In this document: positions 2,798-32,881 of the stretch, piece by piece
How positions within the stretch are numbered: the first letter of the stretch is position 1
Layout of the letters: every line of letters begins with the position of its first letter
Assembly: GCA_001920415.1 (NCBI GenBank)
Contig: MNJR01000147.1
Location: 1-32,881 of the forward strand
Direction of reading: 5' to 3'
DNA: 32,881 nt
Origin: Acidobacteria bacterium 13_1_20CM_3_53_8
GTDB taxonomy: Bacteria > Acidobacteriota > Blastocatellia > Pyrinomonadales > Pyrinomonadaceae
Made by a program: the position numbers and the translations under genes
Notes under the pieces: model-generated
Database searches by the model: none
What the model saw: the letters and a program-made list of their open reading frames with translations, nothing else
What the model was told of the DNA's origin: nothing

Positions 2798-2814
2798 GAT
2801 AAGTCTCCAAAATC

Positions 2815-2978
2815 AAAGAAGGCAAAAGGTAAAAGTAAAAAGGCAAGCTGAAGAAGGTAAAAGTAAAAAGGTAAAAGGCAAAAGTGTGGACACGCCTAAA
2901 GGCGTGAATTAAAGATTAAAAATTGTAGACGGAGGCTTTCTTCTTCCTTTTGCCTTTTACCTTTTTACTTTTGACTTT
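2815..2978. repeat. AT-rich dyad between the M24 peptidase stop and suhB
   Basis: Runs of aaaggtaaaagt-type words (2815-2886) face their reverse complement (2944-2978). The central section 2878-2930 is an inverted copy of 1937-1989, with a few mismatches around a small hairpin, cacgcc/ggcgtg. The dyad ends 4 nt before the peptidase stop codon. Confidence 0.8.
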
Positions 2979-2981
2979 CCT

Positions 2982-4304: not shown

Positions 4305-4342
4305 ATGAGTATAAATTCGCAGATAAGGGTATGCCAGTGCAG

Positions 4343-5992: not shown

Positions 5993-6120
5993 AATTCATA
6001 ACAGAAAACAGGTGAAATCGCTAAGGGCTGCGCGGTCGTGAAGCTAGATTTTTTTGAGGATTTCTGAGGATTCTTTGAATCTGTTTGTAGCCTGACTGGA
6101 AAAGCCTTTTTCTGGTTGCG

Positions 6121-6525: not shown

Positions 6526-6543
6526 TGTAGAATCACCTCTAAC

Positions 6544-7128
6544 TTATCTGTACTGGTCAGCCTGCGGGACTGTCGCCGTCTGTCTGGGAATTTCGGTATT
6601 CGAAGCAGGCATCAATTGCACCTCATGCTCTGGAAACTGGTAGGGTTTGGTAGGATCATCAAGATTAAATGGATCGGTTATAGGCCCAAAGGCTCCGCTG
6701 CTCGGGTTAAAGTACATTATTCGGTAAGGCGTATTTTTCACAAAAGGTACGTTGAAAATTACACTCTCGCTCGTCATGGGTTGTTGACCAATAACGGCAT
6801 AAACGTCAACAGGCACTGAAGTTTTAATCTTACCCGTAACCGGCACCATCACAGGGCACGTTTTCGTGTGGAGTGAGAGATCGGGACAGATGTTTTTAGC
6901 GTAGTAAACTGGAAAGGCCAATAGAAAGCCTCCGAAAAGAAACATGACTAGAACCGGAGCCTGAGTGTTGAGTTCTATCTGCCAGGGCAGTTTAACCTTT
7001 GTTGCCGATACAGGCCTGCCGCGACTGTCCAGACCTATGCGGCGTGTCCAGAGCAAAAAGAGACTGCCAATCACCATTATCATTCCGGCAGCCGAGCACA
7101 AAACGAAAAGAGCCATATTCCAGTCCAT
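6544..7128 (-). CDS. Membrane protein of unknown function with two N-terminal helices
   Basis: The 194-residue protein has a membrane helix near residues 5-27 and a second near 57-76, joined by a short polar segment. The remaining ~115 residues are probably outside the membrane and contain two Cys (NICPDLSLHTKTCPV) that could pair. The C-terminus is rich in Pro, Thr and Gln. GGAGG precedes the ATG at 7128. It is followed by the small secreted protein at 6121-6525, and the two probably act together at the envelope. I do not recognise the family. Confidence 0.7.
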   Translation of the reverse strand: MDWNMALFVLCSAAGMIMVIGSLFLLWTRRIGLDSRGRPVSATKVKLPWQIELNTQAPVLVMFLFGGFLLAFPVYYAKNICPDLSLHTKTCPVMVPVTGKIKTSVPVDVYAVIGQQPMTSESVIFNVPFVKNTPYRIMYFNPSSGAFGPITDPFNLDDPTKPYQFPEHEVQLMPASNTEIPRQTATVPQADQYR

Positions 7129-7436
7129 TTCAAAATCCTCCCTCTGTTTATAGAAAGAGCAGCCCGCCGGAAGAAGAAAGCTTCGTCATCTGTCAAGGAG
7201 TTTCTTAAACGGGCGAGAGCTAAAGACTCGCTCGATGAGATATTTTGTGTACTTGCGAGGAAAACTGAACGCGGAGCAAGCTATGAGAACGGGCGAAGCG
7301 TATTCCTATTATCAGGGTAAGTCAATAAAAAATTCGCGTGCCCAAGCTGGCCTGGCGGCTGATGTTTGACCACGAAGATGAAAAATTTTAGCAGTAAACT
7401 GGCCTCAGCTCAACCCTGAAGCTTACTGCACTAGAC
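7129..7436. other. 308-nt gap without a recognisable gene
   Basis: No reading frame with family features or good coding character is visible on either strand. I see no tRNA, strong terminator or convincing -35/-10 pair. It should hold the promoter for the two-gene minus-strand operon at 6121-7128 and the 3' end of the hutH transcript. Confidence 0.5.
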
Positions 7437-8930: not shown

Positions 8931-8940
8931 TGTTGAAGAA

Positions 8941-9046
8941 AGTGAGAAGAGCAGTTTTCAGTTTTTAGTTTTCAGTTTTCAGCAAAAGCCCGCTCGCTCT
9001 TCTTCTGAAAACTGAAAACTAAAAACTGAAAACTGCTCTTCTCACT
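8941..9046. repeat. Perfect 42-bp inverted repeat between the DUF2270 gene and hutH
   Basis: Positions 8941-8982 and 9005-9046 are exact reverse complements with a 22-nt loop. The arms hold the same cagttttcag words as the dyad at 15-105. It starts 10 nt upstream of the hutH start and ends 11 nt from the DUF2270 stop. A transcript would fold into a very long hairpin. Confidence 0.92.
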
Positions 9047-9057
9047 TATCACCTCTT

Positions 9058-10059
9058 TTACGTTAATGTCTTCTCTCTTGCCGGTCTTCTATCGGGCGTC
9101 TCTGTGGTGTGAATCTGACGGTCGGGAGTTTCCGAGATGTCAATGCGCTTGAACTGTCCTGTGGTGCTGCCGCGAAGGCGCTGGCGTGCTTGCTTCGCAC
9201 GACGCGTGCTGCGTCGCGTAGTGGCTGCTACGCGCGACAATCCTGTCACGCGTCCCAGTGTGCCAAGCGAGAATTCATGCTTCGGCAGAACTTCACCTGT
9301 AGCCTCGCGCAGGCGTAGCGTGGCTAGGGCGAAGATGATTAACCCCAGGTTGAAGATGAAGCCTACTAGAAGAACAACTGAGCCGGGGACAACGCCTACG
9401 GCTGCGCGTGCTATAAATTCGCCCATGTCTCGCGCCGTCTGCGGATGCAGGTAGACCTTCAAATTCCAACTGAGCGCGAGCAGTATGAAGAGCCATAGAT
9501 AGTTGCGGCGAAGACGGCGACCAAGCGCCTCAGACTCGCTGATGGTGAAATGCGGCGTGGTCAAGTCCGCCATCAGATGCTCTGCCCAGACGCGATCAAT
9601 CGTCTGCTGCGGACCCAACATCTGCGCAAAATAGCCTGACTCCATCACGCGCACGCGGCTTGCCCAAATCTCGTAGTAGCGATAACGGCGCGCCTCCATG
9701 AAGAGGAAGAAGGCTACGACGATTGAGTTAATCAGGATGACGAAGTGCGGGTTGCCGGGCGCGCTGAATGCGAAAGAGAGCGTAGCGCCCGCAGTGATGA
9801 CAGCCCAGTTCGTAGTCGTATCAAGACGATTGCGCCATGTGTTCGAGCGTTGAATCTCGCCGCGATAGAAATGGACCATCGCCGTGTTGAGTTCCGACGC
9901 TGAAAATTTTATTGCGCCCGCAGCGGCTTCCGTGCTCTTAGCGACGCCGGGTATTTCTGTGGTGTGCGGCGAGGTCTGGCGCAGACGGCCTGTGGGGCGA
10001 TCAGGTGTGCTGGTGGTGTGTGGGCTGACGGGTCTTCCCGGTCGCGTCTCTGTGCTCAT
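9058..10059 (-). CDS. DUF2270 family membrane protein
   Basis: The 333-residue protein has a central DUF2270-like core: SELNTAMVHFYRGE, then RLDTTTNWAVITAGATLSFAFS, two adjacent membrane helices, MEARRYRYYEIWASRVRVMESGYFA, and a second helix pair near residues 188-245. Both ends are long, polar and probably disordered. The first ~45 residues repeat Thr-Pro-rich phrases (TPDRPTGR) and the last ~60 are Arg-rich, ending in similar phrases (ETPDRQIHTTETPDR). The family has no established function. AT-rich dyads lie on both sides of the gene. Confidence 0.85.
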   Translation of the reverse strand: MSTETRPGRPVSPHTTSTPDRPTGRLRQTSPHTTEIPGVAKSTEAAAGAIKFSASELNTAMVHFYRGEIQRSNTWRNRLDTTTNWAVITAGATLSFAFSAPGNPHFVILINSIVVAFFLFMEARRYRYYEIWASRVRVMESGYFAQMLGPQQTIDRVWAEHLMADLTTPHFTISESEALGRRLRRNYLWLFILLALSWNLKVYLHPQTARDMGEFIARAAVGVVPGSVVLLVGFIFNLGLIIFALATLRLREATGEVLPKHEFSLGTLGRVTGLSRVAATTRRSTRRAKQARQRLRGSTTGQFKRIDISETPDRQIHTTETPDRRPAREKTLT

Positions 10060-10099
10060 CGCCTCAACCTGATCTCCTCAAAAAGCAGATGCTAGTAGA

Positions 10100-10226
10100 A
10101 AAGTCTGGAGTCTGGAGTCCGGTTGATTTTCGATTTTGGATTTGCGATTTTCGATTGAAAGATGCAAAGTGCTTTTAAATCGAAAATCTAAAATCCAAAA
10201 TCGAAAATCCCCAGACTCCAGACTTT
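10100..10226. repeat. AT-rich inverted repeat behind alkA, made of gattttcgatttt-type words
   Basis: The outer arms aagtctggagtctgg (10101-10115) and ccagactccagactt (10211-10225) pair. Inside them, gattttcgattttgga words (10124-10155) pair imperfectly with 10177-10209. The loop is about 20 nt. The dyad ends 13 nt from the alkA stop. It has the same design as the other intergenic dyads but a different word. Confidence 0.85.
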
Positions 10227-10238
10227 AATCATATCATG

Positions 10239-11165
10239 CTAACGGCGCTCAGTGCTTATAGTTCCTGCGCGCAAGCCCGCTAGAAAATAGACTGCGGCGT
10301 AAGATGACCAAAGACCCCAACGCTCACGGGCCAGCGCGCGAATCTCTCGCTCAGACATCTCGCGCCCGTTGTTGTAGTATTTCTGTACGAACAGGCCGAG
10401 CGCAAGATCGCCCGCAGGGAAAACGTCTGTGCGACCGAAGTGAAGCATCAAAGTCCACTCGGCTGTCCAGCGCCCTATGCCGCGCAAATTGGTGAGACGA
10501 GCTATCAAAGTTTCGTTCTCTTCCGTCTCTAATTCGCTCGCGTCCAACTCGCCTTTCGAGATTTTTCGGGCAAGCTCAATCACACCTAGAGCCTTCGCGC
10601 CAGACAGGCCAAGCGAGCGCAAATCTTCCACGCTCGCGCGGGCAATTGCTTCGGGGCGTGGGAAAGCGAAGAAGGTTTCGCCATCTATCGTTATCTGCTC
10701 GCCGAACTTTTCCACCATACGGCGCTTCAAAGTCATAGCAACTGTCGTAGAAATCTGCTGTGAAAGAATCGAGATAGCAAGCGCTTCAAAAAGGTTGGGC
10801 CAACAGGCCAGATGCAGGCCGCGATGATCCTCTTCCAATGTGCGCATCAACGGATCATCTTTCACACGCGCGCGAAATTTTTTTAGATCATGGTCGGTGC
10901 TGAACATTCGCTCGGCAAGCCTTTTAGCCTTGCTCTCTTCATGCTTGGTAAAAGTGCGCTTGTCAGTGAACCAGAGAGCGAGCAAGGGGCGCGAGCGTGT
11001 GCCGCGCGATTCTATGTTCAGCAGGTGAAGATTTTCGGCAAAATGGAAAGCGCGGCGGTAACGCTCGCCTAAAAAAGTGTCCACAATCTCGCTCTGAGTG
11101 AAGCGAAAAAAACGCGCAGTCGCCGCGAAATCAAAGGGAGCGCGCGGGATTATCTCTATCTCCAT
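10239..11165 (-). CDS. alkA: DNA-3-methyladenine glycosylase II (HhH-GPD family)
   Basis: This base-excision repair enzyme removes alkylated bases. The 308-residue protein has an AlkA-like N-terminal domain and a C-terminal HhH-GPD domain. The helix-hairpin-helix is LRGIGRWTAEW (about 228-238) and the catalytic Asp is Asp253 in VFPAGDLALG. LSQQISTTVAMTLKRR is the usual helix before it. Length and layout fit AlkA rather than endonuclease III, since no iron-sulfur Cys cluster is present. It is divergent from tadA across a 116-nt shared gap. The ATG at 11165 has only a weak ribosome-binding site. Confidence 0.9.
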   Translation of the reverse strand: MEIEIIPRAPFDFAATARFFRFTQSEIVDTFLGERYRRAFHFAENLHLLNIESRGTRSRPLLALWFTDKRTFTKHEESKAKRLAERMFSTDHDLKKFRARVKDDPLMRTLEEDHRGLHLACWPNLFEALAISILSQQISTTVAMTLKRRMVEKFGEQITIDGETFFAFPRPEAIARASVEDLRSLGLSGAKALGVIELARKISKGELDASELETEENETLIARLTNLRGIGRWTAEWTLMLHFGRTDVFPAGDLALGLFVQKYYNNGREMSEREIRALARERWGLWSSYAAVYFLAGLRAGTISTERR

Positions 11166-11217
11166 TGTGCCCGGAAGTGTCGCGCAACACGCACGCTTAC
11201 GTCAAAGTCATGTGCGC

Positions 11218-11247
11218 TTGACACCGCAGTTTGCGCGCACCTATAGT
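11218..11247 (+). promoter_or_regulatory. Probable sigma-70-type promoter for tadA
   Basis: TTGACA at 11218-11223 and TATAGT at 11242-11247 are separated by 18 nt. The predicted start site is about 28 nt before the tadA ATG. Confidence 0.6.
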
Positions 11248-11281
11248 CTAATTTTGCGTTTGAAGCTCGGTTGAATTCACT

Positions 11282-11770
11282 ATGTTGACAGAGGGCGCTC
11301 CTGTTGGCGCGGACGAGCAATGGATGCGCCGCGCTCTTGAGGCTGCGCGCGACGCCATGCGGCTTGATGAAGTTCCCATAGGCTGCTGCGTCGTAGCGAA
11401 CGATCAGCTTCTAGCCATCGCGGGAAATCGCACGCGCACAAATTGCGATCCAACGGCGCACGCAGAGATCGTAGCGTTGCGCGAAGCGGCATGGATCGTT
11501 GACAACTACAGGCTCACGGACGCCGTTGTTTACTCTACGATTGAGCCTTGCGCCATGTGCGCGGGCGCGCTCATTCAGGCCAGAATCGCAAGATTAGTTT
11601 ACGGCGCGCGTGACGAGCGCGCTGGCGCAGTTGATACCAATTTCAGCATCTGCGCCTCAAGCTCTTTGAATCATCAAATCCAAGTCACGTCCGGCGTGCT
11701 TGAAGAAGAATGTCGAGCAATAATGCAAGAATTCTTCAGAGCGCGGCGGGACGAGATAAGGCAAAAGTAA
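11282..11770 (+). CDS. tadA: tRNA-specific adenosine deaminase
   Basis: By family it converts adenosine-34 to inosine in tRNA-Arg(ACG), using zinc. The 162-residue protein has the deaminase motif HAE (His60, Glu62) and PCAMC (Cys90, Cys93), with the typical substrate-loop phrase [15 protein letters not shown]. The ATG at 11282 gives the usual N-terminus leading into [12 protein letters not shown]. It stands alone between the divergent alkA gene and the tRNA-Ser, and an AT-rich dyad starts over its stop codon. Confidence 0.95.
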
Positions 11771-11860
11771 GAAGTAAAAAGGCAAAAGGAAGGCCGCAAA
11801 CCAAATTTCTCTTAAAGCTTTTATCCTAACTTTTGCCTTTTTACTTTTACCTTTTTACTT
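11763..11860. repeat. AT-rich inverted repeat between tadA and the tRNA-Ser
   Basis: The words gcaaaagtaagaagtaaaaaggcaaaag type (11763-11790) pair imperfectly with cttttgcctttttacttttac type (11832-11860). They are the same words as the dyads around suhB. The left arm overlaps the tadA stop codon and the right arm ends 7 nt before the tRNA. Confidence 0.8.
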
Positions 11861-11867
11861 CCTGTGC

Positions 11868-11952
11868 GGAGAGGTCGCATAGTGGTTTAGTGCACCGGTC
11901 TCGAAAACCGGAGTGGTCTAACGGCCACCGTGGGTTCGAGCTTCTCCCGCCA
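11868..11952 (+). tRNA. tRNA-Ser(CGA), 3' end damaged by integration
   Basis: Acceptor strand GGAGAGG is at 11868-11874, followed by a D-arm, the anticodon stem CCGGT/ACCGG with anticodon CGA at 11902-11904, and a serine-type long variable arm GTGG/CCAC (11913-11928). The T-arm starts normally with GTGGG and TTCGA (11930-11939). The matching CCCAC strand is missing and the sequence goes straight into cttctcc, which still pairs with the acceptor. About 6-7 nt are lost compared with a normal serine tRNA. An intact 3' end (T-stem, acceptor, discriminator G, CCA) is found 3.9 kb away at the right end of the inserted element. The gene is probably non-functional or poorly functional as it stands. 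Confidence 0.75.
11900..11934 (+). repeat. Left attachment-site repeat (attL core)
   Basis: This runs from the tRNA-Ser anticodon loop through the variable arm to GTGGG. It matches 15819-15853 at 34 of 35 positions; the difference is A at 11912 against G at 15831. Confidence 0.85.
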
Positions 11953-13051
11953 CTTGGCGCGAAGTTGGCGCGAATGAAAGCACCCGCCCCTGCGCTAGAG
12001 AGTCAATTGCTGTTCTTAATTTCTGAGGAACAGCATGTGAATAGCCGAGCGTCATCTTCAGCGTCGAGTGTCCTAGAAGCGTCATAATGTCCATCTCATG
12101 CGTCCCTGCCGCTCTCAATCGAGTAGCGAAAGTGTGACGAAGATCATGGAAACGGAAATCCGTAATCTCGGCCTTCTTCACTGCCGATTCAAAGCAGACC
12201 ATCATCTGCCTACGTTTTCTCCCTGTACGCGCATGATCAAAGATTAACTCTTTTTCAGGTGCATCCTGCCGCAAAGACTTTAGTATTGCCAGAGCCTTTG
12301 CTGATAGCGGGATACGGCGTGGCTTGTCTGTTTTGGTCTGCGGGATATAGATCGTCTGAGTCATCGGGTTCACATGCTCCCACCTTGCATTGAGCAGTTC
12401 CCCTAGTCGCATCCCGGTCTCAAGTGCGAGGTTGACTAAAGCCGGAAGATGCTCGCCATAAGGAACGAGCGCCTTCAGCAACTTTTCTTCCTCGTCTGGC
12501 GTCAAGTATCTCTCCCGGCCTTGTGGTTCTCTAAGGCGTTTGACTCTCGACATCGGATTGCTATCGACCAAACTATTCTCATAGGCCATCGAAAGCACCC
12601 TTGACAGGACTTGAAGCTCGCGGTTGACGGTCGCTGGCGAACGCTCGCGCTTGTATCTAGTTGGAGTCTTCAGCCTTTCAAACTTGAACTTCTCTATCAG
12701 AATGGGAGTAATGTCTCGCACTGCTCGACCTTTGAAGAACTCTTTAATCGGGCGAGCGCGTTCCTCGTCATCCTTCCAGCTTCGTTTAGACTCTTTGGCC
12801 CACTTCAGAAACACGTCATCTACGAAATCCGACAGACGCGTTACTGCTGTAGCTTTGTTGTATTTTCTGTCAAAGATCGCCTGCTTGATCTGCGTCTCGA
12901 CCTGCTCGGCCTGCTTCTTCGTGCGGGCCTCCGGTACAGCTTCTTTGATGTAATGACCACGAAGCGAGAACTCGACAACCCATGTGCCGTGCTCCCAATT
13001 CGGATCGTTCGTTTTAATTCGCTTCCCTTTGAAGCGTTTGTAGACTGCCAT
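11918..13051 (-). CDS. Tyrosine recombinase/integrase
   Basis: The 377-residue site-specific recombinase has an N-terminal Arm/SAM-like region (about 1-175) and a C-terminal catalytic domain. The active-site residues are visible: Arg215 (ETGMRLGEL), a Lys near 240-243 (QTKTDKPRR), His302 and Arg305 (HDLRHTFATRL), His328 (LLGHSTLKMT) and nucleophile Tyr337 (GYSHAVP). AGGAG precedes the ATG at 13051. The last ~20 residues are encoded inside the tRNA-derived attachment site, so the stop codon lies within tRNA sequence. It should catalyse integration and excision of this element at tRNA-Ser. Confidence 0.95.
   Translation of the reverse strand: MAVYKRFKGKRIKTNDPNWEHGTWVVEFSLRGHYIKEAVPEARTKKQAEQVETQIKQAIFDRKYNKATAVTRLSDFVDDVFLKWAKESKRSWKDDEERARPIKEFFKGRAVRDITPILIEKFKFERLKTPTRYKRERSPATVNRELQVLSRVLSMAYENSLVDSNPMSRVKRLREPQGRERYLTPDEEEKLLKALVPYGEHLPALVNLALETGMRLGELLNARWEHVNPMTQTIYIPQTKTDKPRRIPLSAKALAILKSLRQDAPEKELIFDHARTGRKRRQMMVCFESAVKKAEITDFRFHDLRHTFATRLRAAGTHEMDIMTLLGHSTLKMTLGYSHAVPQKLRTAIDSLAQGRVLSFAPTSRQVAGEARTHGGR
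11952..11973 (+). repeat. Left copy of a 22-bp direct repeat (possible integrase arm site)
   Basis: The core is ttggcgcgaagttggcgcga, itself two TTGGCGCGA units 11 bp apart. The same 22 nt occurs at 15690-15711 near the other end of the element. It falls within the 3' coding end of the integrase. Confidence 0.7.
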
Positions 13052-13124
13052 TTTTCTTTCTCCTTGTGATGGCAGCCGTCAAAGCGCGACGGAGCATATC
13101 ACAAGCTATTTAGACCGGAAAGAT

Positions 13125-13367
13125 TCAGCTTGCCCGTCTCTCCACGATCTGCATCTCGTGATGCCTCTTCTTTCTTTGCCGCGCGGCTTCTTCTCTCGCC
13201 CATCGATCCACCTCTTCACGATGATAGCGCCGCATCTCGCCCATTGACGCGCAAGGTAGTGGGTACTCGTTCTCCGGGCGCGCAGTCCACTTGCGGATTG
13301 AGTGTACTGTGACCTCCCCGCTCGGCGTCCGTAGCTGCCAGTACTCGGCCAGTTGCTTTTCAGTCAT
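13125..13367 (-). CDS. Small AlpA/excisionase-like DNA-binding protein
   Basis: Starting at the ATG at 13367 this is 80 residues. The N-terminal half reads MTEKQLAEYWQL, then VHSIRKWTARP, then MRRYHREEVDRWAREEAARQRKK, which fits a MerR/AlpA-type winged helix of the kind found in excisionases (pick the start, bind DNA, end in a basic tail). The ATG overlaps the stop codon region of the Uma2 gene by 8 nt, so translation is probably coupled. A longer form from TTG at 13400 is possible but has no ribosome-binding site. It is transcribed towards the integrase gene 73 nt away, and a role in excision control is inferred. Confidence 0.75.
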   Translation of the reverse strand: MTEKQLAEYWQLRTPSGEVTVHSIRKWTARPENEYPLPCASMGEMRRYHREEVDRWAREEAARQRKKRHHEMQIVERRAS

Positions 13368-14397
13368 CCAGACAGGTGGCGGTGCGATCTGCTTCAACAA
13401 GCCCGAACGTCATCAGCAACATGCCAAGTGTATTGCGCGTCCCTTCGCGACCGCAGATTTGCGGGCGGTCGTCCCACCACTCGAACTTCGCTTCGGGTGC
13501 CCACGCGAGGAACTCCTTGAAGTTGATCGGCTCTGGAATCAGCTCGACGCGTGGCGCTAACCGAACGCTTCCCCACGCCTCATCATTAATCACTTCTTGT
13601 TTGCTGTCGGCTTCGCCAGCGTCATGCTCCGCAATCTTTATAATCTGTTCCCATCTGTCCCTTTCCTCGGACCAAAGCTTCGCCGGGTAGAACTCGATTC
13701 TCGGTTCAACAGCAGGCCGATAACAGCCTTCCTCATCAACTCTCTGACTCGTGTAGCCATCGAGTCCGAGCCTTAGCATCTCCACCCGGCGCTCTTCTGG
13801 ATAAACGAGCCAGTATTCGCCGACGCCCGCCTCCGCGTATCGCTCTTTCTTCAGGCCAATCACGTAGTCACTATTCCACGGGCCGCAGATTTCCATGACT
13901 ATATCTGCTGGCCCGTCCAAGTGTGATTCATAAAGAACAGATGTTGAGCGAGAGCTTATGAAGATAAGGTCAGGAGTGAAGGCGTCTTCGCCAAGACGCA
14001 TCACAAAGTCGCGCCCAAGCGCTCTACCTAAGCCGGTGCGGTGGAAGGCGAGCGAGATGTCTGAGCGCAGTTTGGAGATAAGCAGTTGTGGTCGCTTAGG
14101 CAATTCAGGCAGGGTGATTTGATGCTCTACGCCAGCAGCCCATTTGCGCCACGCTTCCAAGTCAGACGGTTCTGCATCCGAGCCGCCGAAAGACTTGCGG
14201 AGCGCCGACCACCACTTCTCCTCCGCAGCAAAAGGGAGCGCTGCGTCCGCACCCCAACCGGCCAAGATGTAGCCGAGCATGGCTAGGCTGCCTCTTATAT
14301 TGCCCCCAAGAAGCAGACGGTTCGAGACCAGTTCCATGCGGGACTCCGGCCCATGTTCTGCATAATGTGTGAATGCGTCATGCGGGCTGAGTGTCAT
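13360..14397 (-). CDS. Uma2 family protein (PD-(D/E)XK nuclease fold)
   Basis: The ATG at 14397 is chosen because GGAGGT lies 9 nt upstream; an upstream GTG at 14430 would add 11 residues without such a site. The 345-residue protein contains a full Uma2 domain in the middle (about 145-230): FTPDLIFIS, then DIVMEICGPWN, then KKERYAEAGVGEYWLVYPE, carrying the Asp, Glu and Lys of a PD-(D/E)XK core. Both ends look like extra Uma2 N-terminal pieces (N-terminus ESRMELVSNRLLLGGNIRG; C-terminus FKEFLAWAPEAKFEWWDDRPQ...TLGMLLMTFGL). The C-terminal one is cut short at the overlap with the AlpA-like gene. Uma2 proteins are common in bacteria with many paralogues and their role is unsettled. Confidence 0.85.
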   Translation of the reverse strand: MTLSPHDAFTHYAEHGPESRMELVSNRLLLGGNIRGSLAMLGYILAGWGADAALPFAAEEKWWSALRKSFGGSDAEPSDLEAWRKWAAGVEHQITLPELPKRPQLLISKLRSDISLAFHRTGLGRALGRDFVMRLGEDAFTPDLIFISSRSTSVLYESHLDGPADIVMEICGPWNSDYVIGLKKERYAEAGVGEYWLVYPEERRVEMLRLGLDGYTSQRVDEEGCYRPAVEPRIEFYPAKLWSEERDRWEQIIKIAEHDAGEADSKQEVINDEAWGSVRLAPRVELIPEPINFKEFLAWAPEAKFEWWDDRPQICGREGTRNTLGMLLMTFGLVEADRTATCLDD

Positions 14398-14460
14398 AAA
14401 CGTCCTACCTCCGATAGGAAATTCTAACACCGCTTCTACCTAGCTCACTGATATTTATTT

Positions 14461-20369: not shown

Positions 20370-21947
20370 ATGAAAACTCGTCAGTGGCTTAAACCCCGGT
20401 TAATGATTGTTGCAATCGTGAGCGTAGGTCTTCTCATTGGCATAAGAGTGCTGCATACGTCTGGCAAGATAGATGTGATGCCGTCGGCCAGCACCGCAAC
20501 GACACTTCCGCAACCAGAGCAGGCCAGATCGGCTGCTTACCAATGGCTAGAGATAGCGTTGGAGGCCACGGCCCGCGAACATGCGCGCAATATCCCGCGT
20601 CCTACTATCGGCTCGCGCATGTTGGCGATCATCGTGACCGCCATGTATGACGCTTGGGCTGCTTATGATGAAAGGGCAGTCGGCACGCGTCTGGGCGGTA
20701 GTCTGCGCCGCCCGCTGGCTGAGCGCACACAGGCCAATAAAGAGAAGGCTATCGCCTATGCTACCTACCGTGCGCTGCTAGATCTGTTTCCAGAAGATAG
20801 CGAGTGGCTGAACGGGCAGATGCGCCAGCAGGGCTTCGACCCAAACGACACTTCGACCGATCCATCGACACCGCAGGGCGTGGGCAACGCGGCGGCGGCG
20901 GCCCTGATCGCCTACCGACATCATGACGGCGCAAACCAACTCGGCGACGAAGTTGGTTCTAACGGCAAGCCCTATTCCGATTACACGTTTTACAAGCCTC
21001 TAAATCCGCCAGACCAAATTAGAAACCCGGATAGATGGCAGCCGATTCCATTTGACGATGGTCATGGCGGCAAGGTCATCTACGGCTTTCTCACGCCGCA
21101 GTGGTATCGCGTGAAGCCGTTTGCGCTCAAGAGCAGCGGTCAGTTTCGTCCGGGACCACCGCCGAAAGTTGGCTCTGAGCAACTGCGCAGGGAGGTGGAC
21201 GAAGTTCTCCACTTCAACGGCAATCTGACGCTGGAGCAGAAAGCTATCGTCGAGTTTATGCGCGACGGCCCGCGCTCGACGGGTCAGTCAGGCCACTGGC
21301 TGCGCTTTGCGCAAGCCGTGTCGCGACGCGACAATTACAGCCTTGATCAAGACGTGAAGCTGTTTTTCGCCGTCGGCAATACGGCGTTCGATGCCTTTAT
21401 CGCCGCATGGGAAGCCAAACGCTACTACGATAGCTCGCGCCCGTGGACACTCATCCACTACTACTACGGGAACAAGAAGGTGGTGGGCTGGGGTGGCCCC
21501 GGCAAAGGTTTCATCACGCTGCCCGCAGCCGATTGGCATCCCTATTCGCCTTACACTTTCATCACGCCGCCCTTTCCAGGGTATGTCTCAGGCCACAGCA
21601 CCGTGAGCGCGGCGTGCGCCAAGATGCTGGAGTTGTTCACGGGCAGCGACTACTTCGGCGCGACCGAAGTTCGCCACGCTGGTGAATTAACGGAGCCGGG
21701 TGTCTCGTGCGAGTACAAGCAGGCGCGCAATGGAGTACAAGCCACAGGCATCACCTCGGACGGGACGGTCACGCTGTCGCTCCCGACATTCAGTGCGACT
21801 GCACAGATGGCAGGCATCTCTCGTGTCTTGGGCGGCTATCACATTCAGGCCGACAATACCGCCGGACTGAAGTTGGGCAGCAAGGTGGCAAACTACGAAT
21901 GGCCGCAGATTCAGGCATACTTCAACGGGAGCGCAAGCCCGCGTTAA
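20370..21947 (+). CDS. Vanadium-dependent haloperoxidase / PAP2-superfamily enzyme
   Basis: The 525-residue protein begins with a basic start and one hydrophobic helix (about 10-27), a signal anchor, so the enzyme is probably exported. The full acid-phosphatase/haloperoxidase signature is present: KX6RP (Lys350 to Arg357, KRYYDSSRP), SGHS with His409, and SRX5HX3D (Arg485, His491, Asp495, SRVLGGYHIQAD). These residues bind vanadate in haloperoxidases and phosphate in phosphatases. Length and the VSGHST form favour the vanadium haloperoxidase-like branch, but halogenation is not proven. GAGG lies 9 nt before the ATG. The sigma-54 promoter at 20055 should drive it. Confidence 0.88.
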   Translation: MKTRQWLKPRLMIVAIVSVGLLIGIRVLHTSGKIDVMPSASTATTLPQPEQARSAAYQWLEIALEATAREHARNIPRPTIGSRMLAIIVTAMYDAWAAYDERAVGTRLGGSLRRPLAERTQANKEKAIAYATYRALLDLFPEDSEWLNGQMRQQGFDPNDTSTDPSTPQGVGNAAAAALIAYRHHDGANQLGDEVGSNGKPYSDYTFYKPLNPPDQIRNPDRWQPIPFDDGHGGKVIYGFLTPQWYRVKPFALKSSGQFRPGPPPKVGSEQLRREVDEVLHFNGNLTLEQKAIVEFMRDGPRSTGQSGHWLRFAQAVSRRDNYSLDQDVKLFFAVGNTAFDAFIAAWEAKRYYDSSRPWTLIHYYYGNKKVVGWGGPGKGFITLPAADWHPYSPYTFITPPFPGYVSGHSTVSAACAKMLELFTGSDYFGATEVRHAGELTEPGVSCEYKQARNGVQATGITSDGTVTLSLPTFSATAQMAGISRVLGGYHIQADNTAGLKLGSKVANYEWPQIQAYFNGSASPR

Positions 21948-22815: not shown

Positions 22816-24564
22816 ATGCTGCCTTGTATTCAAGAGTCTGATGACAGTCCCAACGCCGTGCAAAGGTTCGCCACACGGGTCGCAAGCGGGTTGGGATTTT
22901 TTGTTTCCTGCTTTGTGTTCCTCGGCTGGGCCACAGACATCGCGACCTTCAGGAACGTGCTTCCCGGCCAACCACAGATGGTTCCCAATACGGCGCTCGG
23001 CTTCATCCTCGCTAGTATTTCGTTATGGCTGTCGCGTGATGAAGGCACGACCCTTTGGGCGCGCCGCTGTGCGTCGGGCTGTGCAGTCGCGGTTGTTCTT
23101 GTGGGCATGTTAACGTTGAGCGAGTACCTGTGGAAGATAGACCTGAAAATAGACCTTCTCGTATTTCAAGACAAATTGAACGGCGGCGGCTCGTCCTTCC
23201 CCGGTCGCCCCAGCCCGCACACCGCATTCAACTTTCTACTCGTCGGCTCCGCCCTGCTGCTTCTCGCCGCGAGGTCAAGAACACTCTACAGGCTTATCCA
23301 ATTTCTTGCGCTCACGTCATTCTTGGTCGCTCTCCTGGCGCTGGTGGGCTATCTCTACGGCGTGACGTTCCTTTATGGGGTCACTGCCCAGACGGGCATG
23401 GCTTTGCACACGGCGCTGACGTTCATCGTCATCAGCATGGGACTACTTTTCGTGCGCCCGAGGCGTGGGTTGATGTCGGTCATCGCAAGTGATACGGCGG
23501 GCGGCCACATGGCCCGTCACCTGTTACCCGCCGCCACCATTATTCCAGTCTTGCTGGGCGGACTCATCGTTTCAGGCGTGCGTAAGGAGATTTACGACGC
23601 GCCTTTCGCCATGTCGCTCTGCGTGGTGGGAAGCATCATCATTCTGGGCGCGCTCATCTGGCGGAACGCGCACACGCTGCACCGTGCCGACCTGGGACGA
23701 GCGTGTGCCGAGAACGCTCTGCGCAGAGCGCACGACGAGTTAGAGGTGAGGATTAAAGACAGGACCGCCGAGCTGTCAAAAGTCAACGAAGCCTTGCAGG
23801 CAGAAGTGGCCGCACACAAAAAGGCAGAGGCGGCTCGCGCCCAACTGTTGCGGCGGCTCGTTACGGCACAGGAAGAGGAACGACGCCGCCTCTCACGCGA
23901 GCTTCACGACTCGCTGGGGCAGCACCTCAGCGCGCTGATGCTTCGTCTGAAGACAATAGAAACTTCCGGCAATGTGTCTCCTGCGCATGCACCAGCCAAC
24001 TTGCTTCAGGTCGAGGAAATCATCTCTCAACTGATGCGCGAGATACATAACCTCGCCTGGGAGCTGCGTCCTGCGGCGCTCGATGATCTCGGTCTTCATA
24101 CGGCACTCGCGAACTACGTGGAGAAATGGTCGGAACGCAGCCGTGTGACGGTTGACCTCCACACCAACATCCGTGACAAACGGCGGCTGCCGCCGGAGAT
24201 CGAAACCGCCATCTACCGGATAGTGCAGGAGGCTCTTAATAACGTTCTCAAGCACGCAGGGGCGCATGGTGTCAGCGTTATCCTCGAACGCCGTCGCGAT
24301 CAGGTGGTCGTGGTCGTCGAAGACGATGGCCAGGGATTTAATGTTGACGCAGCCATCTACGAACCGGAAAAAGAGCATGGCCTCGGCTTATTAGGGATGC
24401 AGGAGCGCGTCACGTTGGTGGGCGGGACGCTAGGCATTGAATCCAGAGTCGGCAGTGGCGCGACCATTGTCGCGCGCATCCCCGTACCTCAGGCGGAAGC
24501 GAAGGAGATTCTTTATGGATACCCTGCGTATCGTATTGGCCGACGATCACGTAGTTATGCGTGA
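22816..24564 (+). CDS. Membrane histidine kinase (NarX/HisKA_3 type)
   Basis: The 582-residue protein has about eight membrane helices in its first ~290 residues, followed by a coiled coil (about 295-345). Next are a HisKA_3 dimerisation domain with phospho-acceptor His364 in EEERRRLSRELHDSLGQH and an ATPase domain with the N box (EALNNVLKHAGA) and G boxes (VVEDDGQGF, GLGLLGMQERV). No periplasmic sensor is obvious, so the signal is probably membrane-borne. AAGG lies 8 nt before the ATG. Its 3' end overlaps the response regulator gene by 50 nt, so the two are a translationally linked pair. Confidence 0.93.
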   Translation: MLPCIQESDDSPNAVQRFATRVASGLGFFVSCFVFLGWATDIATFRNVLPGQPQMVPNTALGFILASISLWLSRDEGTTLWARRCASGCAVAVVLVGMLTLSEYLWKIDLKIDLLVFQDKLNGGGSSFPGRPSPHTAFNFLLVGSALLLLAARSRTLYRLIQFLALTSFLVALLALVGYLYGVTFLYGVTAQTGMALHTALTFIVISMGLLFVRPRRGLMSVIASDTAGGHMARHLLPAATIIPVLLGGLIVSGVRKEIYDAPFAMSLCVVGSIIILGALIWRNAHTLHRADLGRACAENALRRAHDELEVRIKDRTAELSKVNEALQAEVAAHKKAEAARAQLLRRLVTAQEEERRRLSRELHDSLGQHLSALMLRLKTIETSGNVSPAHAPANLLQVEEIISQLMREIHNLAWELRPAALDDLGLHTALANYVEKWSERSRVTVDLHTNIRDKRRLPPEIETAIYRIVQEALNNVLKHAGAHGVSVILERRRDQVVVVVEDDGQGFNVDAAIYEPEKEHGLGLLGMQERVTLVGGTLGIESRVGSGATIVARIPVPQAEAKEILYGYPAYRIGRRSRSYA

Positions 24565-25168
24565 GGGATTGAAGTCGCTGGTCAACGCACAGCCCGATAT
24601 GCAAGTCGTCGGCGAAGCCGACAATGGCCGCGCGGCTTTGGAAAGGGCGAAGGAGTTACAGCCCGATGTCGTCGTCATGGACATTTCGATGCCGGAGCTA
24701 AACGGCATACAAGCCACCGAGCGCCTAAGGGCCAGTTGTCCGAATGTGAAAGTGCTCGGGCTGACAGCGCACGAGGAAAAAGGATACCTGCGGCAGTTGC
24801 TCAAGGCGGGCGCATCCGGGTGCGTAGTGAAGCGGGTCGCGGTCGAGGAACTGGTCATGGCGCTTCGCATGGTCGCCGCAGGCGGAGTCTACTTTGACCC
24901 GTCGGTGGTTGAAGAGGTGATTTGCGGCTACACGGGGAAGCGAAAGCCCAGAGGCGTGCCACAGCGCAGCGACCTCACAGAGCGCGAAGAAGAAGTCCTG
25001 CGCTTCGTAGCGTGGGGTTACACCAATAAAGAGGTAGCAAACTACCTGCGTATCAGTGTGAGGACGGTCGAGACGCATAAGGTGAACTTGATGGAGAAAC
25101 TCGATTTCAAAAGCCGCACCGACATCGTGCGCTACGCCCTGCGCCAGGGTTGGCTGCGCGACAGCTAG
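24515..25168 (+). CDS. NarL/FixJ-type response regulator
   Basis: The ATG at 24515 is chosen because GGAG lies 8 nt upstream and homology begins there (MDTLRIVLADDH). The 217-residue protein has a receiver with acidic Asp10/Asp11, phospho-acceptor Asp56 (VVVMDISMPELNG) and a Lys near 110. Its C-terminal LuxR-type helix-turn-helix reads LTEREEEVLRFVAWGYTNKEVANYLRISVRTVETHKVNLMEKL. It overlaps the kinase gene and is its obvious partner. A 13-bp palindrome follows 12 nt after its stop, in the promoter region of the Oar-like gene, and may be a target. Confidence 0.96.
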   Translation: MDTLRIVLADDHVVMREGLKSLVNAQPDMQVVGEADNGRAALERAKELQPDVVVMDISMPELNGIQATERLRASCPNVKVLGLTAHEEKGYLRQLLKAGASGCVVKRVAVEELVMALRMVAAGGVYFDPSVVEEVICGYTGKRKPRGVPQRSDLTEREEEVLRFVAWGYTNKEVANYLRISVRTVETHKVNLMEKLDFKSRTDIVRYALRQGWLRDS

Positions 25169-29593: not shown

Positions 29594-29780
29594 ATGAGTG
29601 TGGAAGAGATCAGAGCCACGATCAAAGAATCAATCGCCAACATCGCTAATCTTGAGTTGGTGGACATTACGGATCACGCCTCTTACAAGGATGACCTAAA
29701 GCTTGATTCGCTCACCATCCTTGAGATCGCTGTGTCCGCCGAATTTTGTGCAGCAGTACCTTCTAGTGGAAGCGGCCTAG
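29594..29780 (+). pseudogene. Acyl carrier protein gene with an internal out-of-frame deletion
   Basis: GGAGG precedes the ATG. The first ~50 residues are a normal ACP N-terminus: MSVEEIRATIKESIANIANL, then DDLKLDSLTILEIAVSAE with the phosphopantetheine Ser in DSL. Helix III is then missing. In the +1 frame the sequence continues NFVQQYLLVEAA and a TAG at 29778-29780, which looks like a genuine ACP C-terminus and lies 2 nt before the ketosynthase ATG. About 20-25 codons appear lost with a frame change, so the ACP start now reads in frame into the ketosynthase (29594-31003, 469 residues). It is either a real deletion or a sequence/assembly error. Confidence 0.72.
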
Positions 29781-29782
29781 AG

Positions 29783-31003
29783 ATGCGCAGACGTGTAGCG
29801 GTAACAGGCATTGGAGTGGTGACGTCCGTCGGCACGGGGCGCGAGCAGTTCTGGGAAAGCATGCTCGCCGGGCGATGTGGCGTCAGCCCCGTGGAGTGCT
29901 TTGACACGAGCAGCTACAGCGTGCACCGGGGGGCCGAGGTGAAAGAGTTCTGCGCCAAAAAGTTTGTTCTGAAACTCGACGCGGCTCAACTGGGACGCGC
30001 GTCACAATTTGCGGTTGCGGCGGCGCGACTGGCTCTTGAAGATGCACGTGTGCGGATTGACTCGCTCGACCCCGGACGGGTAGGGGTATCGCTTGGGACA
30101 ACCTCGGGCGAGCCGCAAGAGATCGAGCGATTCGATGACTCTTACATGAGCAGGGAGCTAAATAAGGTTGGAGCGGAGTTCATCGCGCGTTACCCGTGCC
30201 ACATGATCTCAGCGCACGTTGCCAGTGAGCTGAACTTTTCTGGCATCAACATGATGATACCGACTGCTTGCGCCGCAGGTAACTACGCCATTGCTTACGC
30301 CTTCGATACGTTACGCGCAGGCCGAGCCGATCTCATGCTGGCCGGTGGGTCTGACGCCTTTTCGCGCATCACCTACACGGGTTTCGCACGCCTCGGTGCC
30401 ATCGCACCGGAGATTTGCCAGCCGTTTGACCGCCATCGCAAAGGTATGATTCCGGGCGAGGGCGCAAGCGTGCTGGTGCTTGAGCCTCTGGAGAGGGCAG
30501 TCGAACGTGGCGCGCGTATTTATGCGGAGGTGACGGGGTACGGTCTTTCCTGCGACGCGCACCACATGACGGCGGCACACCCCACGGGAGACGGCGCGGC
30601 GCGAGCCATGCAGCAGGCGCTTGCGGAGAGCGGCATCAGACCCGAGGATGTTAGCTACATCAGCGCACACGGCACGGGAACGCCGACCAATGACCGCCTT
30701 GAAACCGTTGCCGTCAAGCGCGTCTTTCAGGAAACGGCATATAGTATCCCCATCAGCTCGGTCAAATCCATGCTCGGTCATACGATGGGCGCGGCCTCTG
30801 CCATCGAAGCCGCAGTCTGTGCGCTCTCCGTCTTCAACGACCGGATTCCTCCAACCATCAACTTTGAAGAGCCTGACCCCGATTGCGATCTCGATTATGT
30901 CCCCAACTACGCGCGCGAGCACAGGGTTAATGTGGCGATGAACAATGCTTACGCGTTCGGAGGCAACAACGCCTCGCTCGTCCTCAAGAAATGTGAGGTT
31001 TAG
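29783..31003 (+). CDS. Beta-ketoacyl synthase (KS-alpha, FabF-like) with intact catalytic triad
   Basis: This condensing enzyme joins malonyl-ACP units to an acyl chain. From the ATG at 29783 it has 406 residues, normal for FabF/KS-alpha, and starts MRRRVAVTGIGVVTS. The catalytic residues are Cys163 (PTACAAGNYAI), His296 (SAHGTGTPTND) and His333 (KSMLGHTMGAAS). An upstream in-frame ATG at 29594 would fuse a truncated ACP to it. It is followed after 4 nt by a second, inactive ketosynthase, the KS/CLF arrangement of type II polyketide and aryl-polyene-like systems. Genes beyond the window are needed to define the product. Confidence 0.92.
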   Translation: MRRRVAVTGIGVVTSVGTGREQFWESMLAGRCGVSPVECFDTSSYSVHRGAEVKEFCAKKFVLKLDAAQLGRASQFAVAAARLALEDARVRIDSLDPGRVGVSLGTTSGEPQEIERFDDSYMSRELNKVGAEFIARYPCHMISAHVASELNFSGINMMIPTACAAGNYAIAYAFDTLRAGRADLMLAGGSDAFSRITYTGFARLGAIAPEICQPFDRHRKGMIPGEGASVLVLEPLERAVERGARIYAEVTGYGLSCDAHHMTAAHPTGDGAARAMQQALAESGIRPEDVSYISAHGTGTPTNDRLETVAVKRVFQETAYSIPISSVKSMLGHTMGAASAIEAAVCALSVFNDRIPPTINFEEPDPDCDLDYVPNYAREHRVNVAMNNAYAFGGNNASLVLKKCEV

Positions 31004-31007
31004 ATAG

Positions 31008-32249
31008 ATGGGAAAAGTCGTTATCACAGGCGCTGGAGTCATCTCGTCCCTCGGCGATTCGCTTGACGAATTTCATGCCGCACTATGCAAGGGGCAGAAC
31101 GCAATCAAGCCGATTGAGCTATTCCCGACCGCAATGCTTGGCTGTCCGCTTGGCGGAGAAATCAAGGGCTTCGATGCGCAGATGTATCTGGGCAAAAGAA
31201 ACTTGCGCCCGCTCGACCGCACGTCGCGTCTGGTCGCTTCGGCGGCGCAACTGGCGTTGGACTCAAGCGGCTGGACCGAAGAGATGAGGAACAACGAGGA
31301 AGTGGGCCTGATTCTCGGCACGATGTTTTGCAGCGTTCGCACTATCTCCGAATTCGACCGCCGTGCGCTCGAAGCCGGGCCGACTTACGCCAGCCCGATG
31401 GACTTCTCAAACACCGTCATCAATGCTGCCGCCGGACAAACGGCCATCTTGCATAACCTGCGTGGGGTAAACACCACTGTCTCGACAGGCAACACTTCGG
31501 GGCTGAAGGCTATTGCTTATGCGACAGACCTGATTCGTAGCGGTCGCGCTCGCGCTCTTCTGGCAGGCGGCGCAGAAGAGTTGTGCTTCGAATCATTCTA
31601 CGGTTTTGATCGCGCCGGACTTCTTTGCCGGTCAGAACGCCAGTCGGGCGATTTCCCCATTCCTTTCGATACGCGCCGGAACGGTATGGCGCTCGGCGAG
31701 GGTGCGGCACTCATGATGCTAGAAGACGCCGAGTCGGCGCGCGAGCGTGGTGTGCGCGTGCTCGCGGAGATTAAAGGATACGGCTGCGCGTACCACTGTT
31801 CGCGCGGGCGGGAGGAGAGTGCAGTCGAGGCCATCGCAATCTCAATGCGGCGTGCGTTAGATGATGCAGAGATGCTGCCACATGAAATTCAATGCCTAAG
31901 CGCTTCGGCGAACGGAAGCCGCCAAGGTGATCGCGACGAGGCACAAGCGCTCGTTGCGACCTTCAGCAGCAACTCACATCGCCTGCCTGTGACGGCCATC
32001 AAGTCAATGCTCGGCGAAACACTCGGCGCGTCGGGAGCCATGCAGGCGCTGGACATGGTCGAGACAATGCGCGATGGCGTGCTCCCCGGCACCATCAATC
32101 TGGGAGAGACCGAAGATGATTTCCCGTTCCCATGGATAAGCACCGTCCGCCGGAAGATTGACCCACACAACGGCTTGATTAATTCCGTTGGCTTTGACGG
32201 CCACTGTTGCTCGCTCATCCTTGCACGAGGAGTTGAATCGCTGTGTTGA
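31008..32249 (+). CDS. Chain-length-factor-like ketosynthase lacking all catalytic residues
   Basis: The 413-residue protein has the full thiolase-fold ketosynthase length but none of the active-site residues. The nucleophile position is Asn162 (VSTGNTSGLKAI instead of TACASG). The two His positions are Ser300 (SASANGSRQGD) and Glu337 (KSMLGETLGASG). It directly follows the active ketosynthase with a 4-nt gap, as KS-beta or chain-length factors do, and probably forms a heterodimer with it. Classical factors often have Gln at the Cys position; Asn here is unusual. Structural residues around the pocket are conserved, so it is not a decaying gene. Confidence 0.92.
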   Translation: MGKVVITGAGVISSLGDSLDEFHAALCKGQNAIKPIELFPTAMLGCPLGGEIKGFDAQMYLGKRNLRPLDRTSRLVASAAQLALDSSGWTEEMRNNEEVGLILGTMFCSVRTISEFDRRALEAGPTYASPMDFSNTVINAAAGQTAILHNLRGVNTTVSTGNTSGLKAIAYATDLIRSGRARALLAGGAEELCFESFYGFDRAGLLCRSERQSGDFPIPFDTRRNGMALGEGAALMMLEDAESARERGVRVLAEIKGYGCAYHCSRGREESAVEAIAISMRRALDDAEMLPHEIQCLSASANGSRQGDRDEAQALVATFSSNSHRLPVTAIKSMLGETLGASGAMQALDMVETMRDGVLPGTINLGETEDDFPFPWISTVRRKIDPHNGLINSVGFDGHCCSLILARGVESLC

Positions 32250-32311
32250 TGAAGCTAATACGTTTGTGTTCATCGAGAGTACCGAGAGGATGATCTCTGG
32301 AGGAGCGGACA

Positions 32312-32500
32312 ATGACTACTGGACTCTTTAATCCGGCAAGCGGAATACGAAAACTATTTCTGCACCTCATTTTGATAATAGCTCTCATTTTACTGCTCGC
32401 TTTTGGCAGCCGGAAATTATTAGTCCCGCAGCCTGAAGCCCAGACTATGGGCAGTTGTTCAGCCATGAACCGATCTGCTGAACATGCAGGAAGGGTTTAG
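32312..32500 (+). CDS. Small single-helix membrane protein (unknown)
   Basis: The 62-residue protein has one strong membrane helix (about 15-32, LFLHLILIIALILLLAFG) and a polar tail with one Cys. GGAG lies 7 nt before the ATG. Its stop is 2 nt before the HMG-CoA reductase start, so it is inside the operon. No family is recognised; it might anchor an enzyme complex. Confidence 0.65.
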   Translation: MTTGLFNPASGIRKLFLHLILIIALILLLAFGSRKLLVPQPEAQTMGSCSAMNRSAEHAGRV

Positions 32501-32502
32501 TC

Positions 32503-32881
32503 ATGCTCAGTTTACGCTCATCAGAATCTTTTATCAGCGACGAACGCTTGGAGCTAGTGCCGAGAATGAAAGGGCAGGGCTACCAGAGCGAATATGTCGA
32601 GCGTCGTCGCGCATGGATTGAGCAGAAGACCGGATGCCGTTTGGGGCGTGTCGGCGAATATTCCATCCCGAGCGAAGAGATGAGCGGCAACATTGAGAAT
32701 CCCATCGGCGCGGTGCAGGTGCCGCTCGGGGTGGCCGGGCCGCTTCTGGTTCACGGCCTTCATGCGCGCGGCACTTTCTACGTCCCGCTAGCGACGACCG
32801 AAGGCGCGCTCGTGCGCTCGTATGAGCGAGGAATGGTCGCGCTCACGCGTGCTGGCGGAGTGGAGACGCGCATCCATGCGG
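32503..32881 (+). CDS. HMG-CoA reductase, N-terminal part (runs off the window)
   Basis: The first 126 residues are present. They contain the class-typical sequence ENPIGAVQVPLGVAGPLLVHG (about 65-85), then GTFYVPLATTEGALVRSYERG with catalytic Glu100 in the TTEGAL motif. By family the enzyme reduces HMG-CoA to mevalonate with NAD(P)H, the entry to mevalonate-derived isoprenoids. There is no membrane anchor, so it is a soluble bacterial form. AGGAAGG lies about 8 nt before the ATG. It is in one operon with the KS/CLF pair. Either an isoprenoid branch is linked to the chain made by KS/CLF, or this paralogue reduces another thioester. The remainder lies beyond position 32881. Confidence 0.9.
   Translation, partial: MLSLRSSESFISDERLELVPRMKGQGYQSEYVERRRAWIEQKTGCRLGRVGEYSIPSEEMSGNIENPIGAVQVPLGVAGPLLVHGLHARGTFYVPLATTEGALVRSYERGMVALTRAGGVETRIHA

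What the first reader, a model, noticed from the sequence alone, without database searches (positions are those of the whole stretch)
29594..32881. KS/CLF pair in one operon with HMG-CoA reductase
An ACP remnant, an active ketosynthase, a catalytically empty partner, a small membrane protein and HMG-CoA reductase follow each other with short gaps. Type II polyketide chemistry coupled to mevalonate entry suggests a hybrid lipid or meroterpenoid-like product, or a reductase recruited to another thioester. A haloperoxidase-type enzyme lies 9 kb upstream, and such enzymes modify meroterpenoids in actinobacteria.
Basis: partly seen in the sequence, partly recalled or inferred. Interest (0 to 1): 0.75.

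Follow-up and report, generated by a model that had tools for sequence, protein, structure and literature searches.

The report
Repurposed HMG-CoA reductase in lipid cluster
A soil-bacterium gene cluster pairs chain-building enzymes related to those suspected of making the ladder-shaped lipids of anammox bacteria with an enzyme that looks like the statin target HMG-CoA reductase but probably turns a fatty chain into an alcohol instead of making mevalonate.

Summary
In detail: a broken ACP, an intact KS, a triad-less CLF, a small ORF and the start of a class I HMG-CoA reductase (HMGR) homologue end contig C17. The gene's remainder opens contig C45, followed by a CrtI-like oxidase, UnbV/FG-GAP proteins, an acyltransferase and UbiB kinases. 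Of 80 loci fetched by KS, 22 carry this HMGR, each 6-331 bp behind the CLF. In 396 genomes, all 11 with this HMGR carry this KS; 3 have the KS alone. It is probably no mevalonate enzyme: the own genome has DXR but neither HMG-CoA synthase nor MVD; catalytic residues are kept, the HMG pocket is replaced, much as in FcrA, an HMGR homologue shown to reduce fatty acyl-CoA to alcohol (PMC11948995). The KS/CLF is of the anammox ladderane-candidate type. Best reading: a KS/CLF lipid pathway with reductive release by an FcrA-like enzyme; product unknown. This genome's ACP has an out-of-frame deletion, so this copy may be decaying or misassembled. Meroterpenoid and haloperoxidase ideas are not supported.

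The parts
29594..29780 (+). acyl carrier protein gene with an internal, out-of-frame deletion of about 68 nt (remnant; carries the DSL serine)
   Evidence: weak match to NCBIfam ACP models, residues 2-50
29783..31003 (+). ketosynthase (KS), catalytic Cys-His-His intact, ladderane-operon type
31008..32249 (+). chain-length-factor-like partner (CLF), no Cys/His/His; Glu at the second His position
32312..32500 (+). small ORF with one hydrophobic stretch (read by eye), 62 aa; not a fixed part of the cluster
32503..32880 (+). HMG-CoA-reductase homologue, N-terminal part (126 residues); continues at the end of contig C45 (L005:19055-19810, minus strand)
22816..24564 (+). sensor histidine kinase; possible regulator (counterparts before the cluster in L080 and L094 only, of 91 loci)
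24437..25168 (+). LuxR-type response regulator; possible regulator (matches in 6 of 91 loci, two of them the same genome; 68% identity in L080, 27-35% in the others)

Best explanation
This is the start of a conserved Acidobacteriota lipid/polyketide gene cluster. A KS/CLF heterodimer (kin of the anammox kuste3605/3606 type) extends an acyl chain on a dedicated ACP. A CrtI-like flavoenzyme desaturates or isomerises the chain, and a class I HMGR homologue, no longer a mevalonate enzyme, reduces the finished thioester with NADPH to a primary alcohol, which an SDR-PlsC-type acyltransferase can couple into a lipid. Shown: gene content, order, co-occurrence, intact catalytic residues, replaced HMG pocket, no mevalonate pathway found in the own genome. 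Inferred: the reaction of each enzyme, the order of steps, whether the thioester is on ACP or CoA, and the product. In this particular genome the ACP gene is broken, so activity here is doubtful unless the deletion is an assembly error.
For: Own genome: DXR found, HMG-CoA synthase and MVD not found. HMGR tree: KS-linked clade A 100/100, FcrA-like clade B 98/83, mevalonate-operon clade C 100/99. Clade A keeps E559 (27 of 28 distinct rows, one cut), K691, D767 and H866 (28 of 28 each), but 684 is F/L (28 of 28), K735 is lost in 27 of 28, L862 is F in 27 of 28; clade C keeps the canonical residues in 8 of 8 except H752 (7 of 8). FcrA, an HMGR homologue changed at the same three pocket places, reduces fatty acyl-CoA and not HMG-CoA (PMC11948995: abstract, sections 19 and 20, passages). 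HMGR lies 6-331 bp behind the CLF in the 22 of 80 loci that carry it; CrtI-like gene in 20 of those 22. 11 of 396 genomes have clade A HMGR, all 11 have the KS; 3 have the KS only (taken to be the same draw; Fisher p 4e-19, not corrected for kinship). KS 81 of 81 Cys-His-His, CLF 0 of 73. In G386, where KS/CLF lie elsewhere, an ACP-like ORF stands right before the HMGR (L041:12316-12594).
Against: No enzyme assay. Clade A lacks the Glu at 684 and the Trp at 862 described for FcrA (F at both), and no characterised FcrA sequence was fetched, so its place inside or beside FcrA is open. In 4 of the 11 genomes (G386, G238, G172, G226) the KS/CLF lies on another contig than the HMGR, and in G318 3.3 kb with other genes lie between CLF and HMGR (L046). 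G386 has an HMG-CoA synthase hit, no DXR or MVD hit, and clade A as its only HMGR, so a mevalonate role there is not excluded. Five of the 11 genomes (G246, G368, G238, G334, G015) have MVD, so absence of the mevalonate pathway is not a rule for clade A. The ACP of this genome is broken and no other cluster-type ACP was found. C17 and C45 are joined by inference. The AlphaFold model of the HMGR monomer was poor (pLDDT 55.6), so the pocket was judged from sequence only.
Confidence: 0.62

Rival explanations
1. The HMGR homologue is a general fatty acyl-CoA reductase (FcrA-like) that supplies fatty alcohol for wax or ether lipids; the KS/CLF makes a separate product and the two merely share an operon.
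For: The sister clade B, with the published FcrA pocket residues, lies beside wax ester synthase in 3 of 13 loci (two of the three, L051 and L052, near-identical), UbiB in 5 and patatin in 4. In 4 of 11 genomes clade A HMGR and KS are unlinked. WS/DGAT is present in 7 of the 11 clade A genomes.
Against: In 396 genomes clade A HMGR was never seen without the KS; the HMGR sits right behind the CLF in 22 of 22 loci that carry it; own genome, G116, G172 and G226 show no WS/DGAT.
Confidence: 0.2
2. One reading: the enzyme makes mevalonate for a hybrid polyketide-isoprenoid (meroterpenoid) product.
For: It is a class I HMGR homologue by Pfam and NCBIfam. G386 has an HMG-CoA synthase hit and no other HMGR.
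Against: No HMG-CoA synthase or MVD found in the own genome, MEP enzyme DXR present; HMG pocket replaced; in G246, G368, G238, G334 and G015 the mevalonate operon holds a different HMGR, clade C, next to MVD; no prenyltransferase downstream among 16 of 17 ORFs scanned.
Confidence: 0.05
3. In this genome the cluster is a decaying remnant: the ACP is lost and the KS can no longer be loaded, or uses the housekeeping ACP.
For: 68-nt out-of-frame deletion in the ACP; the only other stand-alone ACPs found are the FAS ACP beside fabF (C148) and an unrelated one on C36.
Against: KS, CLF, CrtI-like gene, acyltransferase and UbiB are open and as conserved as in relatives; the deletion could be an assembly error in a draft genome of 155 contigs. 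It concerns this copy only (intact ACP in 6 of 6 relatives and 4 of 4).
Confidence: 0.4
4. The cluster makes true ladderane or ladderane-like chains outside anammox bacteria.
For: Shares ACP, KS, CLF and CrtI-like gene with the anammox operon; ladderane lipids include alcohols and ethers (PMC2649909, passages), which fits a reductive release.
Against: The B12-binding radical SAM gene that follows in Kuenenia and a FabZ were not found in the own cluster; for other non-anammox clusters of this class no ladderanes are reported in PMC9902471 and PMC7298704 (passages).
Confidence: 0.08

Closest known systems
FcrA, HMGR-type fatty acyl-CoA reductase (Natronomonas pharaonis, Ca. Promineifilum breve; PMC11948995)
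   Same: Class I HMGR homologue, catalytic residues kept, HMG pocket residues replaced at human positions 684, 735 (printed as Lys795 in the paper; I take it to be 735) and 862, often in genomes without mevalonate pathway.
   Different: F instead of E at 684 and F instead of W at 862; companion is KS/CLF instead of wax ester synthase; no N-terminal Lad domain seen; substrate untested.
Anammox ladderane-candidate operon kuste3603-3608 (PMC2649909, PMC4790861, passages); solved KS/CLF 9s5h/9s5i
   Same: ACP, KS with Cys-His-His, partner lacking the triad with Glu at the second His, CrtI-like flavoenzyme, in that order; KS 52-57% identical.
   Different: No FabZ and no radical SAM found next to it; HMGR homologue inserted between CLF and CrtI-like gene; acyltransferase, UnbV/FG-GAP and UbiB genes downstream.
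Highly reducing type II PKS for ishigamide (PDB 6kxd; the names Iga11/Iga12 and the product are recalled)
   Same: KS/CLF heterodimer (recalled); second-best PDB match of the KS profile.
   Different: Lower score (420 against 592 bits for 9s5h); actinobacterial and without HMGR homologue (recalled).

Membership tests
FcrA (HMGR-type acyl-CoA reductase) | catalytic Glu559, Lys691, Asp767, His866 kept | tested here: met
   27 of 28 (one row cut), 28, 28 and 28 of 28 distinct rows
FcrA (HMGR-type acyl-CoA reductase) | HMG-binding Lys735 replaced | tested here: met
   27 of 28 rows
FcrA (HMGR-type acyl-CoA reductase) | Ser684 replaced (Glu in N. pharaonis) | tested here: inconclusive
   replaced in 28 of 28, but by F/L, not Glu; clade B has Glu in 13 of 13. 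HMMER places a gap here instead
FcrA (HMGR-type acyl-CoA reductase) | Leu862 replaced by a bulky residue (Trp in N. pharaonis) | tested here: met
   Phe in 27 of 28; Trp in 12 of 13 of clade B
FcrA (HMGR-type acyl-CoA reductase) | branches within the FcrA clade | tested here: inconclusive
   sister to clade B against mevalonate HMGR and one archaeal HMGR; no characterised FcrA in the tree
FcrA (HMGR-type acyl-CoA reductase) | reduces acyl thioester to alcohol | not testable with these tools
   needs an assay
Mevalonate-pathway class I HMGR | HMG pocket residues S684, D690, K692, K735, N736 kept | tested here: not met
   residue roles in part recalled
Mevalonate-pathway class I HMGR | HMG-CoA synthase and mevalonate-PP decarboxylase in the genome | tested here: not met
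   for the own genome, 95.9% complete
Ladderane-candidate operon (kuste3603-3608 type) | ACP + KS (CHH) + triad-less partner + CrtI-like gene in a row | tested here: met
   (HMGR homologue interposed; ACP broken in this genome)
Ladderane-candidate operon (kuste3603-3608 type) | adjacent FabZ and radical SAM enzyme | tested here: not met
   no such Pfam hit in 16 of 17 downstream ORFs; Kuenenia has the radical SAM
Ladderane-candidate operon (kuste3603-3608 type) | ladderane lipid produced | not testable with these tools
   needs lipid analysis
Meroterpenoid cluster | prenyltransferase and isoprenoid precursor genes | tested here: not met
   (16 of 17 downstream ORFs)

The most novel reading that the evidence does not exclude
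An HMGR-fold enzyme that releases a finished chain from a type II KS/CLF system directly from its ACP as an alcohol: a new reductive off-loading route, in a cluster that shares its core with the anammox ladderane-candidate operon and makes an unknown, probably unsaturated or cyclised lipid alcohol in Acidobacteriota.
Probability: 0.35. Interest if true: 0.85.

Novelty: new variant of a known kind. Interest (0 to 1): 0.62.

Why it matters
Bacterial genes labelled HMG-CoA reductase are easily read as mevalonate enzymes. Here one is tied to a KS/CLF of the kind suspected in ladderane synthesis, in a genome where no mevalonate pathway was found. It gives a second repurposed HMGR lineage beside FcrA, with a different pocket, and a testable hint at chain release in ladderane-like pathways, whose chemistry is still unsolved.

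Tried and rejected
Meroterpenoid and haloperoxidase link: rejected. In-frame ACP-KS fusion as a designed two-domain protein: rejected, because the ACP tail survives in another frame. Phasin idea for the two C45 proteins L005:8235-8714 and 6802-8157: no Pfam hit for 5 members of the larger family up to E 10, for the own copy only a chance-level one (E 0.24); AlphaFold model pLDDT 73.8 with no PDB match at E <= 0.001. I drop the name 'phasin'. HMGR monomer model too poor to judge the pocket.

Text searches for this KS/HMGR pairing: in the listings I saw no paper describing it; no bioRxiv and few subscription journals are held, and one search listed only 15 of 356 papers. The paper behind 9s5h was not found; its source is inferred from 91-95% identity of chain B to Brocadia and Jettenia KS.

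The KS tree was the quick kind. Of the 26 loci without HMGR that are not Planctomycetes, some are cut by contig ends (L092, L133). FGb1 (L005:12932-14812) was not scanned with Pfam. One search's HMG-CoA synthase model also rings in E. coli and B. subtilis, so its hits are not all proof of the enzyme.
Full report
Observation. The window is the whole contig C17 of a draft genome (6.1 Mb, 155 contigs, 95.9% complete) whose phylum relatives are Acidobacteriota (contigs of G246 and G116 have the lengths of records titled Acidobacteria). From 29594 on it carries an ACP remnant, a KS, a CLF, a small ORF and the first 126 residues of a class I HMGR homologue. PF00368 has two matches in the genome: positions 2-90 at the end of C17 and 131-368 at the end of C45. 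I take them as two parts of one gene: the nearest relative L080 has the whole gene in the same order with KS 76%, CLF 70% and CrtI-like gene 78% identical. About 37 residues are missing in between.

The ACP. Six relatives have a separate ACP of 83 to 89 residues (one, L042, with a longer assigned start), and four more are intact. In the window about 68 nt are missing relative to L080, out of frame; the tail survives in another frame and the front now reads into the KS (the count is by hand from that output). No other ACP of this kind was found in the genome: PF00550 finds the FAS ACP beside fabF, one unrelated stand-alone protein and four matches in large open frames.

Downstream genes on C45 (L005, minus strand): HMGR remainder, CrtI/CrtISO-like flavoenzyme (522 aa), two pairs of FG-GAP and UnbV/ASPIC proteins, an SDR-PlsC acyltransferase protein (580 aa; only the acyltransferase part has a Pfam hit, the SDR part is my reading of the sequence), a UbiB/ABC1 kinase, two proteins without family, a TlpA-like protein, a second UbiB, and five ORFs without Pfam hit.

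Conservation. Of 80 loci fetched with the KS alignment (more exist), 22 hold the HMGR homologue, all 22 Acidobacteriota, each 6-331 bp behind the CLF; 20 of the 22 have the CrtI-like gene, 12 the acyltransferase, 4 UbiB within the fetched stretch. 32 loci are anammox or other Planctomycetes by title: CLF in 32, CrtI-like in 30, ACP in 26, HMGR in none. Of 10 loci of the Acidobacteriota-type KS group without HMGR, 8 carry a FAD oxidoreductase and most of these also a carotenoid-oxygenase-like (RPE65) protein; six HMGR-bearing loci carry one or both too (L045, L046, L082, L083, L084, L091) (families named from one member each). This speaks for an unsaturated chain. Nine of the 39 sequences compared have a FabG-like reductase. 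In 396 genomes of the phylum, 11 have the clade A HMGR (60% identity or more; the next long match is 48%) and 14 the KS at E <= 1e-125; the 11 are all among the 14, and the other 3 have KS identities of 50-56%. In 4 of the 11 the KS/CLF is elsewhere in the genome, and in G318 other genes lie between.

The KS/CLF. All 81 KS kept Cys-His-His; of 73 CLF none has any of the three, and 67 have Glu at the second His. Kuste3606 has Val/Asn/Glu there (PMC2649909, passages), the commonest CLF pattern in my set (18 of 73). The best PDB match, 9s5h/9s5i, is 91-95% identical to KS of Brocadia and Jettenia. Kuenenia locus L127 has the order ACP, a 169-residue ORF, KS, CLF, CrtI-like, radical SAM, as in kuste3603-3608 (PMC4790861, passages). 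In the KS tree the Acidobacteriota group (33 rows, with one Zixibacteria and one Verrucomicrobia row) is supported at 99, the anammox group (32 Planctomycetes rows and one uncultured) at 96.

The HMGR homologue. Three clades of class I HMGR occur in these genomes, each monophyletic in 54 rows. Clade C lies with MVD, kinases and in part squalene/phytoene synthase and keeps the canonical residues. Clade B has E684 and mostly W862 and has lost K735, the FcrA pattern, and lies next to wax ester synthase in 3 of 13 loci. Clade A, the KS-linked one, keeps the catalytic residues but has F684, E690, mostly R692, no K735 in 27 of 28, T736, mostly H740 and F862. The own genome, G116 and G172 have DXR and neither HMG-CoA synthase nor MVD; G318 has DXR, no HMG-CoA synthase and only a sub-threshold MVD match; G246, G368, G238 and G334 have HMG-CoA synthase and MVD with a clade C enzyme beside MVD; G015 has DXR, MVD and clade C but no HMG-CoA synthase hit; G386 has an HMG-CoA synthase hit but neither DXR nor MVD, and clade A as its only HMGR, which leaves a mevalonate role open there; G226 is 77% complete and shows none of the three. 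[quoted passage not shown]); a term search of that paper for polyketide, ketosynthase, ladderane and Acidobacter gave no occurrence in the main text.

Mechanism. KS/CLF elongation on ACP, modification by the CrtI-like enzyme, four-electron reduction of the thioester by the HMGR homologue, coupling by the acyltransferase. The first part rests on catalytic residues and kinship, the reduction on FcrA by analogy; the order and the product are inference.

Verdict. The finding is real, extends well beyond the contig, and is more interesting in its second reading (recruited reductase) than in its first (mevalonate, meroterpenoid). Both halves have a known counterpart (FcrA; ladderane-type KS/CLF); their union and the clade A pocket were not seen in the papers listed by my searches.

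Noticed in passing
L049-L057, L066-L069 (clade B HMGR): A second repurposed HMGR lineage in Acidobacteriota with the FcrA residues, beside UbiB (5 of 13 loci), patatin (4), a PHB-accumulation regulator (4) and wax ester synthase (3); families named from one member each.
   Followed up: partly
L075, L077, L079, L081, L110 and others: Related clusters without HMGR carry a halogenase-like FAD enzyme and an RPE65/carotenoid-oxygenase-like protein near KS/CLF; one MAG (L081 and L123) has both cluster types.
   Followed up: partly
L005:6802-8157 and 8235-8714 (contig C45): Two proteins with a shared N-terminal motif and no family hit; the larger one recurs in 6 of the sequences compared with HAG and FWxGxGR motifs and a confident all-helical core without PDB match.
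   Followed up: partly
window 20370-21947: Vanadium-haloperoxidase-like protein (DUF6851, VCPO second domain); a counterpart lies near the cluster in 1 of 91 loci only.
   Followed up: yes
L140, L147: Two Nitrospirae loci with a KS of this clade show short matches (37-54 residues) at 56-68% identity to the CrtI-like enzyme, against about 30-34% over longer stretches in anammox loci.
   Followed up: no
window 107-14430: Ordinary genes: protein kinase, inositol phosphatase, M24 peptidase, urocanase, aromatic amino acid lyase, DNA glycosylase, phage-type integrase.
   Followed up: no
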